Positions 2,800-15,136 of a DNA stretch of 64,000 nucleotides are shown in pieces. The number at the start of each line of letters is the position of its first letter. The stretch's first letter is position 1. The position numbers were made by a program, and so were the translations under genes. Below the pieces are notes generated by a model. That model worked only from the letters and a program-made list of their open reading frames with translations, searched no databases and was not told the origin of the DNA. Source of the DNA: Cyprinodon diabolis (lineage: Eukaryota > Chordata > Actinopteri > Cyprinodontiformes > Cyprinodontidae); assembly GCA_030533445.1 (NCBI GenBank), contig CM060076.1, positions 12,192,501 through 12,256,500 on the forward strand. Direction: 5' to 3'.

Positions 2800-2966
2800 A
2801 ACCTCATCACTTGAGAAGGTAGGTGATGCGGACGTCGTGGAAGACATTTTGTCCCGTAACGCTCGCCGTACTGTTGGGGGGGAGAAGCGGTGGGGGGGAG
2901 ATGTTCATGTTGCTGCGGTCTGCAGTCTGGACGTTAGATGTCGCTGAAAATTACACACTGTAGCTT
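2800..2966. repeat. Probable interspersed repeat end abutting the palindrome
   Basis: A GC-richer island with a poly-G stretch near 2875-2900 ends in a sequence that reads, on the minus strand, TTAAAGCTACAGTGTGTAAT. I associate this type of end with an abundant teleost repeat family, but from memory only. It stops where homology to the right arm of the NT5C1 palindrome begins (about 2966). The family is unidentified and the other end was not located. Confidence 0.4.
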
Positions 2967-3139
2967 TAATGGGCCACTACTAAACTGTTCTTTAAAAATA
3001 TTTGGTACAAATTATAATCTCATTTTATAGGCTTCAAAAACCATTTAATTACCTACATCCAAACTTTTTCTTTAGAGGGGCATGTTTTATATATAAATAT
3101 TACTAATGTGGAGCTAATTTCTTCCCATGGAGTTAAATT

Positions 3140-6100
3140 TTAGTGTTTCACTTCAAGTAACTCCTTTTTTTCTGGCTGCTCAATGAGTTTCCTTTTGTGG
3201 TACTTCTGTCCTATTCCATAAGGGACATGTGCAGATATGGTTCCCAGTTCCTTGGCCCTCTCAATATGGTGCATCTGGTCATCAAAGAAGATATGAGGTC
3301 TTATCTTCTGCAGCAGGGGCCCCTTTGGAGCCCCAGCAAGGAAGAGGGCCTCATCAATTTCCAGGCCCCAGTTTCGGAGGGTCTTCAAGACACGAGCCCC
3401 AGAGCTCGCTGCACCACGAGAAGTGACCAGGAAGGTTCGTATCGGGCAATTCATGCGTTCGTCCTTCTCATAAAATTTTCTCTGAAGGTTTCCAAGTGCC
3501 TCCAGGAAACACTTTAATGGACCCTGTAGGAAGAACAGAATACAATTAAAGTTGGTTAAAACGTTTTCATCTTGAGGTTTTCTATATTTTTATGATACGA
3601 TCAAAAACTTCTGTGTATTTTTGATTCATCAAAAAGTGTTAAATAATTGTAAAGTTGGAGGAAAAAGACATGCTTTAACATTTTTTATTTTTTTATTTTA
3701 CTTTATCTTCCTGAATCAATATAACAGCTGTGAATGCTATGGTATATGTCAATAGAGGATTTCCATGACTAGAGGTATTTCTTTGCTGCAAATCATCTCA
3801 TCCTTTTAGATAGAGAGCGTTTATTAGCAGCAGTTAACAAATATTGTAAAACATTTGATTTTATTTACTTCTCCCTGTTGACTTGGCCACTCAAAAATAC
3901 GAGTATGCATCAGTCTAAACTATTCCACTGCAGTATGTGAGGAGTGTACCTGTAAATACTAGATAGTTTTGGCGGGCTTACAAATAATCTGTTAGCTGTG
4001 GTTTCTTCCTAGATGAAGCACTTAAAAGCTATTGTTCTCATCAAATCTATTATTTCTTAATGAAATACTCATGGAACAATATCACATAAAAAAAGATTTG
4101 TTTTTGTATCTAAATTTGTTGTTGTTGTATAATGGAACAAAATGTAAGAAGGTGAAAGCTCGGAAAGCTTTTGCACATACTGTACAGCTGGCTAGAATAG
4201 TTCATAACTTCTCCAGGAGGTGGAGTCTAGCCAGTCTAGCCTGTATCGGCACATTTAGGTGGTTATAACAGCAGAAATATAAGTCCACGTGCAAGCTAGG
4301 ACAGTTATTAAATTCTTCTAATAAAGATAGAGAATATGACTCTCTGAGTTTAGCCAGTGCTAGAGATAAATAAGAAACTTTAAAAGCTGTGGCTTCAACA
4401 AGAGTCCTTATATAGTTTTTAATTTTATGTGTAAACAAATATAAACATGGGGTTGATAATGCTACATCAGAAATGTAGCATTTAGATGAATTTTTTACCT
4501 GAGCCAAGGGTGTGTCCTTGTTTTTTTTCTCATGCTCATTGAAACCGTCAAGGCCTTGTTGCTTATAGATCTTTTCTGACTTGTCTGAGAAAATGACAGC
4601 GTCACCATCAAACGCCACTCTTAGCTCAGTCTCACTCAGATCGCTTTCCTTTTGTGGCATAAACAGGGTACCTGCAGCAATTCCTATATGGGGTGTAAAG
4701 GGAAGCTTTTTGTTTACACCTTTAAGCTTTCTATTCCAAATTCTTTCCTGAGAAGAGATCACTTGGGACAAACTTTTCATAATTTGTATGTATTAAATAA
4801 CCATGAGACATGACAAGAGATGATGACATAAATTATAATCTTACTCAGACCAGAATTTGCTTAGGGTTACAGATGGCAGCGCTTGCCAACCACATCATGC
4901 CCAAATCAAAGTTGAAGAAACATTTTATAAAACTCCAGTATCATCATAATGATCATTATATCATCATATCATTACATCATAAACGTTTGTAAATAAGGGG
5001 ACATCCATGGCTCCAGCTATATCCAAATATCACACTATGTTCTTAGATCAAGGCTATTTCTAATGCCCCGTGAGAGATGGCTCACTGTTAAGAGTCATCC
5101 ACTCTGTCTTTGTACTTTCATTTCATTTTGGAATCTGTTATGTACATAATGAACATAATACCTGTAGATCCTGATAGAAGAACTGTTCTAATGAGATACA
5201 CTGCTTGGGAAGACACTATTTTTAACACACAACAGGCTGGTATGAAAACATAGATATTAATAAAATAAAATAATAATAAAAAGCGGAAATTACATAAGAT
5301 GGGATGCATAACATTGATATAAGAGGATAAAAAAATAAGATAGAAATAATTAGTCACATTCAAATTTAAAATATGAAAAATGCAATAAATTCAGTAGAAT
5401 AAATATAAAGACATATACAGTTAGATAGTCCATTAAAATCAAGCCAGATGCAAAGAGTGGAAGAACGGGAGAATAGAAGCAGCAAATATAGCTTGAATCA
5501 TCTGGAGGAGACTTCCATCCATCCATCCATCCATCCATCCATCCATCCATCCATCCATTTTCTTACACATTTAATCCCAAGTGGGGTTGCGGGGGTGCTG
5601 GTGCCATTCTCCAGCTGTCTATGGGCGAGAGGCAGGGTCCACCCTGGACAGGTCACCAGTCCATCACAGTCCAGAGGAGACTTTCCAGTCAAAAGCATAA
5701 CTCCCCTTATTTACCATTTCCGGAGCGGCACAGGTAAATACAACAGAAAGGCCAACCATGTTCTTTATCCCCTTCTTCTGTGAAGTAAGTTTTTCTAAGG
5801 GTAAAACTTTTTACATTTCTTGGTAGCACTGTTGGGGGAATTTGCTTATCCACTGATTAAAAATACACCTCCTAGCCAGTAATAAAAGCTTCTCACAGAG
5901 TTTAAAATCTGTCCTACTCAGAGATAATGTCTTTAAACTTGTATGGAACATGTTTAGTGATCAGGTTGTAATATAAAGAAAAACAGCTCCTCTTACCTCC
6001 CTCTATGGCATCTATGACCTTCTTTTCATTCGTAGAAAGGTAAAGGTTTGTCATGTAGGCCTGCAGGTAACCTATAGGACTTCTCCCTCCAGTCATACAG

Positions 6101-6398
6101 AATCTCTCTATGGTCAAACCTGGAACAGAATCAAAAACATAAGATATGCATGAAGAATAAAGGCCTAGTTCTAATGATCTCTCTCCTTGACTGTTTGCTG
6201 ATGTAGGGAGGAGGTGAGACGTTGCTGAGCTGAACAAATAACATTATTGGTTAAGGAACGCTGCGTACCATAGTGATTAATGCTGTTTCTAAAGCGTGGA
6301 ACGTCTTTAGCATTGCTGCTAGTCATCAATATGATGTCAAACAGCTCCTCGCTGTTAGAATTAAGCTCCCTCAGTCGACTGTTGACATTCATGAGAGC
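3140..6398 (-). pseudogene. NT5C1-like 5'-nucleotidase copy 1, 5'-truncated (exons 3-6)
   Basis: Four exons match the NT5C1 family (cytosolic AMP 5'-nucleotidase, HAD-like fold): exon 3 at 6269-6398, exon 4 at 5997-6119, exon 5 at 4499-4683 and exon 6 at 3140-3523. All have usable AG/GT splice signals, and lengths and phases match copy 3 (130, 123 and 185 bp, then the terminal exon). The motifs DGDAVIFSDKS, TSRGAASSGARV and FFDDQM are present. Exons 1-2 and the promoter are missing: homology ends in intron 2 at 7528, and upstream DNA carries those exons only on the opposite strand. The family stop codon has become TTA, which adds six residues (LLEVKH) before TAA at 3140-3142. The 3' UTR poly(A) signal of the paralogs is also cut off. 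It is probably not expressed as a full enzyme in this arrangement, although its reading frame is unbroken. Confidence 0.85.
5515..5669 (-). mobile_element. 5'-truncated GGAT-tailed retroposon in copy 1 intron 4
   Basis: Read on the minus strand, the element ends in a short (GGAT)n tail preceded by a conserved block containing CAGGGTGGACCCTGCCTCTC. It is flanked by imperfect direct repeats, TCTGGAGGAGACTT at 5501-5514 and TCCAGAGGAGACTT at 5670-5683. The same insertion lies at the matching site of copy 2 (10127-10317), so it predates the copy 1/copy 2 duplication. The body resembles the 3' end of a common teleost LINE/SINE family; the assignment to a named family is uncertain. Confidence 0.7.
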
Positions 6399-14215: not shown

Positions 14216-14464
14216 CCTCTAGTCGTGGAAAGCCTGTATTGACATATACTATAGCATTCAGCGCTGTTATATTGATATAAGAAGATAAAGTAAAAAAACA
14301 AACAAAAAATGTTAAAGCATGTCTTTTTCCAACTTTACAATTATTTAACACTTTTTGATGAATCACAAATACACTGAAGTTTTTGATCATATCTTAAAAA
14401 TATAGAAAACCTCAAGATGAAAACGTTTTAACCAACATTAATTGTTATTCTGTTCTTCCTATAG

Positions 14465-14830
14465 GGTCCATTCAAGGATTTCCTGGAGGCACTTGGAAAC
14501 CTCCAGAGAAAATTTTATGAGAAGGACAAACGTATTAATTGCCCGATACGAACCTTCCTGGTCACTTCTCGTGGTGCAGCGAGCTCTGGGGCTCGTGTCT
14601 TGAAGACCCTCCGAAACTGGGGCCTGGAAATTGATGAGGCCCTCTTCCTTGCTGGGGCTCCAAAGGGGCCCCTGCTGCAGAAGATCAGACCTCACATCTT
14701 CTTTGATGACCAGATGCACCATATTGAGGGGGCCCAGAAACTGGGAACCATATCTGCACATGTCCCTTATGGAATAGGACAGAAGTACCACAAAGGGAAA
14801 CTCATTGAGCAGCCAGCAAAAAATGAGTAA
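14465..14830 (+). CDS. NT5C1 copy 2 exon 6 (catalytic C-terminal part)
   Basis: Encodes 121 residues from GPFKDFLEALG to QPAKNE, followed by TAA, the same length as in copy 3. It contains TSRGAASSGARVLKTLR and IRPHIFFDDQMHHIEGA. Copy 3 and the mammalian enzymes as I remember them have TARSAASSG and DDQMFH, so Ala to Ser, Ser to Gly and Phe to His are changes shared by copies 1 and 2. The reading frame is open despite the damage upstream. Confidence 0.85.
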   Translation, partial: GPFKDFLEALGNLQRKFYEKDKRINCPIRTFLVTSRGAASSGARVLKTLRNWGLEIDEALFLAGAPKGPLLQKIRPHIFFDDQMHHIEGAQKLGTISAHVPYGIGQKYHKGKLIEQPAKNE

Positions 14831-15136
14831 CTTGAAGTGAACCACTAAAATGTATCTCCATGGGAAGAGATTGGCTCAAAATTAGTAATATTTATATATA
14901 AAACATGCCCCTCTAAAGAAAAAGTTTGGATGTAGCGAATTAAATGGGTTTTGAAGCCTATAAAATGTGATTATAATTTCTACCAACTATTTTTAAAGCA
15001 CAGTTCCATAGTGGCCCATAAAGTTCTCTTTATAAAACTAAAAAGACAAAAAAAAAGAAAGACTAGTTAATACTTTTATGTTTTAGTCATACCTGTTCCT
15101 TTTTATTGGGTCAGTCAGAAATGAAAACCCTTTTAA

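What the first reader, a model, noticed from the sequence alone, without database searches (positions are those of the whole stretch)
2966..15022. Palindrome whose centre carries the promoter and first two exons: a possible gene switch
The two arms (2966-7528 and 8386-15022) carry exons 3-6 of NT5C1 in opposite orientation. The 857-bp centre carries the promoter and exons 1-2, facing the right arm, and both arm boundaries fall inside intron 2. Recombination between the arms would invert the centre and connect the promoter and exons 1-2 to the left copy. The left copy has the intact exon 3 acceptor that the right copy has lost. In one orientation a complete gene could form, in the other a broken one. 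The layout is seen directly; actual flipping is inference.
Basis: partly seen in the sequence, partly recalled or inferred. Interest (0 to 1): 0.85.

Follow-up and report, generated by a model that had tools for sequence, protein, structure and literature searches.

The report
Decaying inverted copy of nucleotidase gene
In this killifish-like genome part of a duplicated nucleotidase gene was copied backwards beside its own first exons; the layout would allow a DNA flip to rejoin a whole gene, but what the sequence shows is gene decay and patchy copying between the two arms, with no sign that a flip has happened.

Summary
The layout is real. Two inverted arms (2964-7528, 8386-15023; 96.5% identical over 4406 aligned bases) carry exons 3-6 of a cytosolic 5'-nucleotidase I gene. 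An 857-bp centre holds exons 1-2 and conserved 5' flank. The right arm has lost the exon 3 acceptor; the left has it.

It is collinear with centre plus right arm across the inner boundary and past the outer end, so the assembled orientation is the ancestral one and the left arm a truncated derivative.

The arms seem to exchange patches: two tracts are nearly identical against 4.4% noncoding divergence elsewhere, which points to gene conversion. But an inversion joins the centre to the intact exon 3 only if the crossover lies in intron 2 (999 of 4406 columns), where no exact run reaches 150 bp; crossovers in the long tracts carry the broken exon 3 along.

The copy had lost conserved exon 3 residues before the arms formed. 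Best reading: a lineage-specific decaying duplicate with an inverted fragment. A switch is possible on paper, unsupported here.

The parts
2964..7528 (-). Left arm, copy L: intron 2 (from its 24th base) to past the stop codon, inverted; no exons 1-2
   Evidence: ends where homology with R ends
6269..6398 (-). L exon 3, canonical acceptor ttacag and donor
5997..6119 (-). L exon 4
4499..4683 (-). L exon 5
3140..3523 (-). L exon 6 coding part; usual stop codon lost, six residues added
7528..7650 (.). End of a dispersed repeat with a 22-bp tandem array (7528-7605); the left inner join lies at its edge
7879..8020 (+). 5' flank shared with C3, presumed promoter region (inferred)
8021..8086 (+). Centre exon 1 (48 nt shorter than C3 exon 1, in frame)
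8210..8362 (+). Centre exon 2, using the acceptor 12 nt inside the ancestral one (ancestral AG is TG)
8386..15023 (+). Right arm, copy R exons 3-6
9331..9399 (.). Tetranucleotide array (17 units) that now abuts exon 3 of R; acceptor deleted
9400..9517 (+). R exon 3 remnant: acceptor and first 12 nt missing, donor intact
9436..9930 (.). Near-identity tract 1 with L 6350-5857 (exact runs of 385 and 105 bp), presumed gene conversion
11668..12182 (.). Near-identity tract 2 with L 4834-4320 (exact runs of 439 and 75 bp), presumed gene conversion
9667..9789 (+). R exon 4
11819..12003 (+). R exon 5
12741..14212 (.). Insert only in R, about 8-9-bp target duplication and similar inverted ends (hAT-like; name recalled)
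14465..14830 (+). R exon 6 with stop
20072..25551 (-). C3: third, complete copy, exons 25406-25293, 25169-25002, 23188-23059, 22909-22787, 22500-22316, 20927-20562; 361 aa

Best explanation
A fish cytosolic 5'-nucleotidase I gene (C3) was duplicated tail to tail in one lineage, giving R (shown by sequence and tree). R drifted fast. Later a piece of R, from the 24th base of intron 2 to past the stop codon, was copied in inverted orientation upstream of R's own first exons, with the join at a 22-bp tandem array of a dispersed repeat (join shown; copying mechanism inferred). This gave L, which has no first exons. The arms then diverged by about 4.4% and each gained private changes, while two tracts stayed nearly identical, most likely through gene conversion (inferred). 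R lost its exon 3 acceptor by a deletion ending in its tetranucleotide array. The locus is a decaying duplicate with an inverted fragment whose arms exchange short patches. Inversion is possible, unobserved, and at the likeliest crossover places would not restore the gene.
For: C3 collinear with centre+R across 8386 and beyond 15023, not with L beyond 2964. L and R sisters 100/100, clade with C3 and C. variegatus 98/100, long L/R stem. Lesions: R exon 3 acceptor, centre exon 2 acceptor, L stop codon. 21-22 of 225 conserved sites changed in R and L, 2 in C3. Conversion: longest identical run reached by 0 of 20000 shuffles, noncoding alone p=0.0035; 2 L/R differences against 51 shared with respect to C3 inside, 56 against 200 outside, p=0.0009 after choosing the tracts. 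Flip geometry.
Against: dN/dS of L and R against C3 is 0.31 and 0.36, exon 4 keeps 27 of 27 conserved sites, and apart from the R acceptor all exons 3-6 of both copies are open, so the copy was under some constraint for a time. L shows 4 nonsynonymous to 4 synonymous changes, leaning to constraint without significance (P 0.12). Whether either copy is transcribed is unknown.
Confidence: 0.72

Rival explanations
1. Inversion switch: crossovers between the arms flip the centre, so that some chromosomes join exons 1-2 to L exons 3-6, a complete gene, and others carry the broken gene.
For: Geometry: 969 of 4252 identical columns tested give the intact exon 3 after a flip, with an open frame of 346 residues. 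Near-identical tracts suggest that the arms recombine. A shared tetranucleotide array lies in the part where a crossover would rescue. Human inverted repeats of 94% mean identity are polymorphic for inversion (PMC3961182).
Against: Ancestral orientation in the assembly. No exact run of 150 bp or more in the rescuing part, longest 106 bp. The two long tracts would carry the broken exon 3 along. Shared altered exon 3 block. [quoted passage not shown]
Confidence: 0.08
2. L is expressed without any flip: the centre promoter also fires leftward, a new first exon is spliced from the minus strand into L exon 3, and translation starts at the in-frame ATG in exon 3, giving an N-terminally short protein.
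For: Two donor-like sites on the minus strand upstream of exon 1 (7931 and 7840); intact L acceptor and an ATG as third codon of exon 3. Divergent transcription from vertebrate promoters is common (recalled).
Against: No transcript data; the donors are matches to a short motif; the product would lack exons 1-2, where 28 conserved sites of the family lie in exon 2.
Confidence: 0.07
3. R still makes protein through a cryptic acceptor before its tetranucleotide array, so that array length, not orientation, sets the reading frame (a microsatellite frame switch).
For: At the present length one of 19 AGs tested keeps the frame (exon start 9313). Of 13 array lengths tried, each leaves at least one of the AGs tried in frame; the two that look most like acceptors (exon starts 9297 and 9329) are in frame at 4 lengths each.
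Against: The one acceptor in frame now is purine-rich before the AG. R changed 9 nonsynonymous to 2 synonymous since the split, as if neutral.
Confidence: 0.04
4. Assembly artefact: the inverted arm or the identical tracts are a fold-back, haplotype or polishing error.
For: One assembly only; inverted repeats are a known trouble spot; near-identical tracts inside diverged arms could come from misplaced reads.
Against: Divergence of 4.4% with private insertions and deletions in each arm does not fit a fold-back read or a second haplotype. Among the listed matches of the centre only itself and C3 reach past its first 126 bases.
Confidence: 0.05

Closest known systems
Human inversions mediated by inverted segmental duplications: HsInv0241 (AQP12A/AQP12B) and HsInv0209 (PMC3961182, passages read)
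   Same: Inverted repeats that hold paralogous gene sequence; [quoted passage not shown] HsInv0209 has 94% mean identity and a likely breakpoint in a long tract of 99.9% identity.
   Different: Both orientations are seen there; here only one. Here a single set of first exons sits between the arms, and the near-identical tracts lie beyond the lesion.
Factor VIII inversions in haemophilia A (recalled; mentioned in PMC3961182 passages; PMC8776779 seen in a listing only)
   Same: Recombination between inverted repeats can part a promoter and first exons from the rest of a gene.
   Different: Far longer and more alike repeats there (recalled).
Gene-converting palindromes such as human Y P6 (PMC3723533, abstract and section 13 read)
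   Same: Arm-to-arm conversion, with inversions much rarer than conversions.
   Different: P6-type arms exceed 99.9% identity; here 96.5% overall.
Inverted paralogous gene pairs in Caenorhabditis (PMC1803023, abstract and discussion read)
   Same: Inverted repeat that includes paralogous gene sequence, with conversion proposed.
   Different: Structure maintained across species there; here no relative could be examined.

Membership tests
Inversion mediated by inverted repeats (HsInv0241 type) | Inverted repeats flank the segment | tested here: met
Inversion mediated by inverted repeats (HsInv0241 type) | Long tract of near identity for the crossover | tested here: met
   439 and 385 bp exact, but beyond the exon 3 lesion; none of 150 bp or more in intron 2
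Inversion mediated by inverted repeats (HsInv0241 type) | Both orientations exist | not testable with these tools
   One assembly; a single match to the unique centre besides C3 among the listed rows
Site-specific inversion switch with its own recombinase (bacterial phase variation; recalled) | Short specific sites and a recombinase | not tested
   No search for a recombinase was made; 9 window proteins scanned with Pfam gave only 5-nucleotidase and C2
Gene-converting palindrome of the P6 kind | Arm identity above 99% | tested here: not met
   96.5% over 4406 columns
Gene-converting palindrome of the P6 kind | Arm-to-arm gene conversion | tested here: met
   Statistical evidence only:
Cytosolic 5'-nucleotidase I (PF06189) | Pfam domain above the curated cut-off | tested here: met
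   C3 404.9 bits, L exons 3-6 308.5 bits, cut-off 28.2
Cytosolic 5'-nucleotidase I (PF06189) | Conserved residues kept | tested here: not met
   For L and R: 22 and 21 of 225 sites changed, 12 and 11 of 37 in exon 3; C3 2 of 225
Processed (retrocopied) pseudogene | No introns | tested here: not met
   Introns present in all three copies

The most novel reading that the evidence does not exclude
The inversion is a common polymorphism: some chromosomes carry the centre facing left, joined to the intact exon 3, and express a fast-evolved nucleotidase paralogue that other chromosomes lack, with recurrent flips by arm recombination setting a heritable on/off state of a vertebrate gene.
Probability: 0.06. 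Interest if true: 0.65.

Novelty: new member of a known kind. Interest (0 to 1): 0.3.

Why it matters
It is a compact natural case in which inverted copies of one gene share a centre that holds the only first exons, so conversion, inversion and decay can be told apart by reading a few junctions. If both orientations existed it would be a heritable on/off state of a vertebrate gene set by arm recombination. As it stands it shows that the place of the crossover, not the mere presence of inverted arms, decides what a flip can do.

Tried and rejected
Fold-back or haplotype artefact as main reading: set aside for 4.4% divergence and private insertions and deletions in both arms. Selection or a low mutation rate alone as the cause of the near-identical tracts: unlikely, since their noncoding parts differ from C3 as elsewhere (51 shared differences in 362 columns inside, 200 in 1250 outside) yet hardly between L and R; that Fisher test follows tracts chosen for identity, so the permutation is the fairer number. 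Rescue of R by another acceptor: of 19 AGs that end at 9000-9420 one keeps the frame (exon start 9313) and it is a poor site; skipping exon 3 shifts the frame. A solved structure to place the changed exon 3 block: none found (3 weak matches of E 0.3 or more). The promoter scan is for bacterial sites and says nothing here. Paper searches for palindromes with teleost (0 papers) and for nt5c1b with fish and duplication (5 papers, none to the point by listing) led nowhere. The direction of the conversions and the age of the arms in years could not be settled. The block of 15 changed bases of 33 in exon 3, shared by L and R (7 of 96 in the rest of the exon, p=4e-6, block chosen after seeing it), is unexplained.
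Full report
What is there. A self-comparison of the window gives inverted matches between 2964-7528 and 15023-8386 in several pieces at 93-96% identity, and a third, more distant copy in the orientation of the left arm at 20072-25551 (one search gives the same arms). I call the copies L (left arm, minus strand), R (centre plus right arm, plus strand) and C3 (minus strand). Exon models were built by matching peptides and reading splice sites. 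C3 has six exons with canonical sites and a 361-aa frame; Pfam names it 5'-nucleotidase PF06189, E 2e-121; its best match is cytosolic 5'-nucleotidase 1A-like of Cyprinodon variegatus, 97% identity over all 361 residues (120 best of 4389 matches listed). The window is therefore from a cyprinodontoid fish or near; the species was not identified. It lies in a 1.22-Gb assembly of 936 contigs, on C15.

Centre exons 1 and 2 (8021-8086, 8210-8362) face right. The inner end of both arms is the 24th base of intron 2. L exon 3 begins with a normal acceptor (exon start 6398). In R the tetranucleotide array ends at 9399 and exon 3 resumes at 9400 without its acceptor and its first 12 bases. Not mentioned: the exon 2 acceptor of the centre is AG->TG with an in-frame substitute 12 bases on; L has lost the usual stop codon and gains six residues; and there is a third copy.

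History. C3 aligns without a break with the centre and the right arm (8092-8642 with 25279-24729, 81%), and with R beyond the arm's outer end (15023-15348 with 20403-20072, 91%), while the L outer flank tested (2700-2964) has no match in the window. So R keeps both original flanks and L is the derived, truncated copy: the centre faces the arm with which it arose, and any flips so far are even in number, zero being simplest. The left inner join lies at the edge of a 22-bp tandem array (7528-7605) that belongs to a dispersed repeat: the centre has 453 matches in the genome, and of the listed rows only itself and C3 reach past its base 126. In 6 of 6 loci compared the shared part runs from 7528 to 7647-7653. 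The rest of that repeat is not found beyond the left arm: window 1-3000 against L003-L008 gave only three 36-bp matches at 1547-1582. In the tree of 20 proteins L and R are sisters (100/100) and group with C3 and C. variegatus (98/100); the order within that clade is open, the L/R stem is 0.3 changes per column and the C3 end branch 0. So the duplication is confined to this lineage as far as sampled, and R changed fast before L was made.

Did the copy work before? At 225 sites conserved in at least 97% of 136 homologues (sites where L or R has a gap not counted as changes), C3 departs at 2, centre+L at 22 and R at 21; in exon 3 at 12 (L) and 11 (R) of 37, in exon 4 at none of 27, in exon 5 at 5 of 36, in exon 6 at 4 of 90. 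Nine of the exon 3 changes form one block of 11 codons, shared by L and R, with 15 of 33 bases changed. dN/dS against C3 over exons 3-6 is 0.31 for L and 0.36 for R (ratios of the values), so the copy was partly constrained for a time. Since the arms split, R has 9 nonsynonymous and 2 synonymous changes and L 4 and 4; neither differs from the neutral expectation of 0.746 nonsynonymous (P 0.81 and 0.12). No protein above 79% identity to the joined frame was among the 120 listed of 4243 matches (which scored only the 7995 candidates sharing most words). That database is clustered at 90% identity and may not hold this species.

Do the arms recombine? Two stretches of the arm alignment stand out: 439 bp exact (L 4834-4396, R 11668-12106, around exon 5) and 385 bp exact followed by 105 bp exact (L 6350-5857, R 9436-9930, end of exon 3 to beyond exon 4). 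None of 20000 shuffles of the mismatches reached the longest run; with exons taken out the longest run has p=0.0035 (0.00145 if gaps count) and the second 0 of 20000 (0.00075 if gaps count). Noncoding mismatches are 2 of 619 inside the tracts (taken as R 9436-9930 and 11668-12182) and 132 of 2981 outside; intron 2 alone has 30 of 987. The inside is not slow in general: against C3 it shows 51 shared differences in 362 columns, the outside 200 in 1250; Fisher p=0.0009 (2408 of 2950 three-way columns, those with credible local alignment, were used). Gene conversion is the simplest cause; assembly effects are not excluded.

What a flip would do. A crossover between inverted arms inverts all that lies between the two points, inner arm parts included. 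I formed the flipped gene for each of 4252 identical aligned columns: 969, all at R 8386-9397, join the centre to the intact exon 3; 3283 do not. Of all aligned columns 999 of 4406 lie in that part. Exact runs of at least 100 bp offer 7 of 703 start positions there, runs of at least 150 bp 0 of 526; the longest exact run there is 106 bp. The two long tracts lie beyond the lesion, so a crossover in them would carry the broken exon 3 with the centre to the left. A conversion from L across the deleted stretch (139 columns) could mend R without a flip, and has not done so in this assembly. So the switch is possible in geometry and disfavoured by where the arms are most alike. That crossovers need long exact runs is general knowledge (recalled), not tested here.

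Known parallels. [quoted passage not shown] Among 45 human inversions seven might exchange gene sequence at the repeats, and one makes a fusion transcript (PMC6748972, passages read). [quoted passage not shown] Inverted paralogous pairs with proposed conversion are described in Caenorhabditis (PMC1803023, abstract and discussion read). PMC8776779 (factor VIII) and PMC4591017 (a human inversion with a fusion transcript) were seen in listings only. My seven paper searches listed no paper on this locus; they cover only the open library and list only the best ranked.

Verdict. The most likely object is a decaying, lineage-specific duplicate gene with an inverted 5'-truncated fragment, in which the arms exchange short patches. 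Long reads and RNA decide it.

Noticed in passing
9466-9498 (R) and 6288-6320 (L), exon 3: A block of 11 codons with 15 of 33 bases changed against C3, identical in L and R, hitting nine residues conserved in the family, while exon 4 keeps all 27 of its conserved sites. Cause unknown: loss of constraint, a mutation cluster, or selection.
   Followed up: partly
17141-18415 and 25941-27197: Two 95% alike direct copies of a 1.26-1.28-kb element on either side of C3, with CAGTG...CACTG-type ends and 8-bp flanking duplications (7 of 8 and 8 of 8 bases): independent hAT-like insertions (name recalled).
   Followed up: partly
7528-7650; L003-L008: End of a young-looking dispersed repeat with a 22-bp tandem array; copies L006 and L008 are 96% alike over 1129 bases.
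   Followed up: partly
5514-5558, 6508-6594, 9331-9399, 10238-10318, 23731-23855: Tetranucleotide arrays in introns of the copies, differing in length; the one in R intron 2 now touches exon 3, so its length sets the frame for any acceptor before it.
   Followed up: partly
48338-48820 and 50923-51312, plus strand: Two C2 domains (E 3e-9 and 2e-12), probably exons of a synaptotagmin-14/16-like gene (name recalled).
   Followed up: no
44137-45054, plus strand: Open frame of 306 codons, rich in charged residues, no Pfam match for 44137-45051; it begins with MAFFKSFQPTLPSVNIS after a short leader.
   Followed up: no
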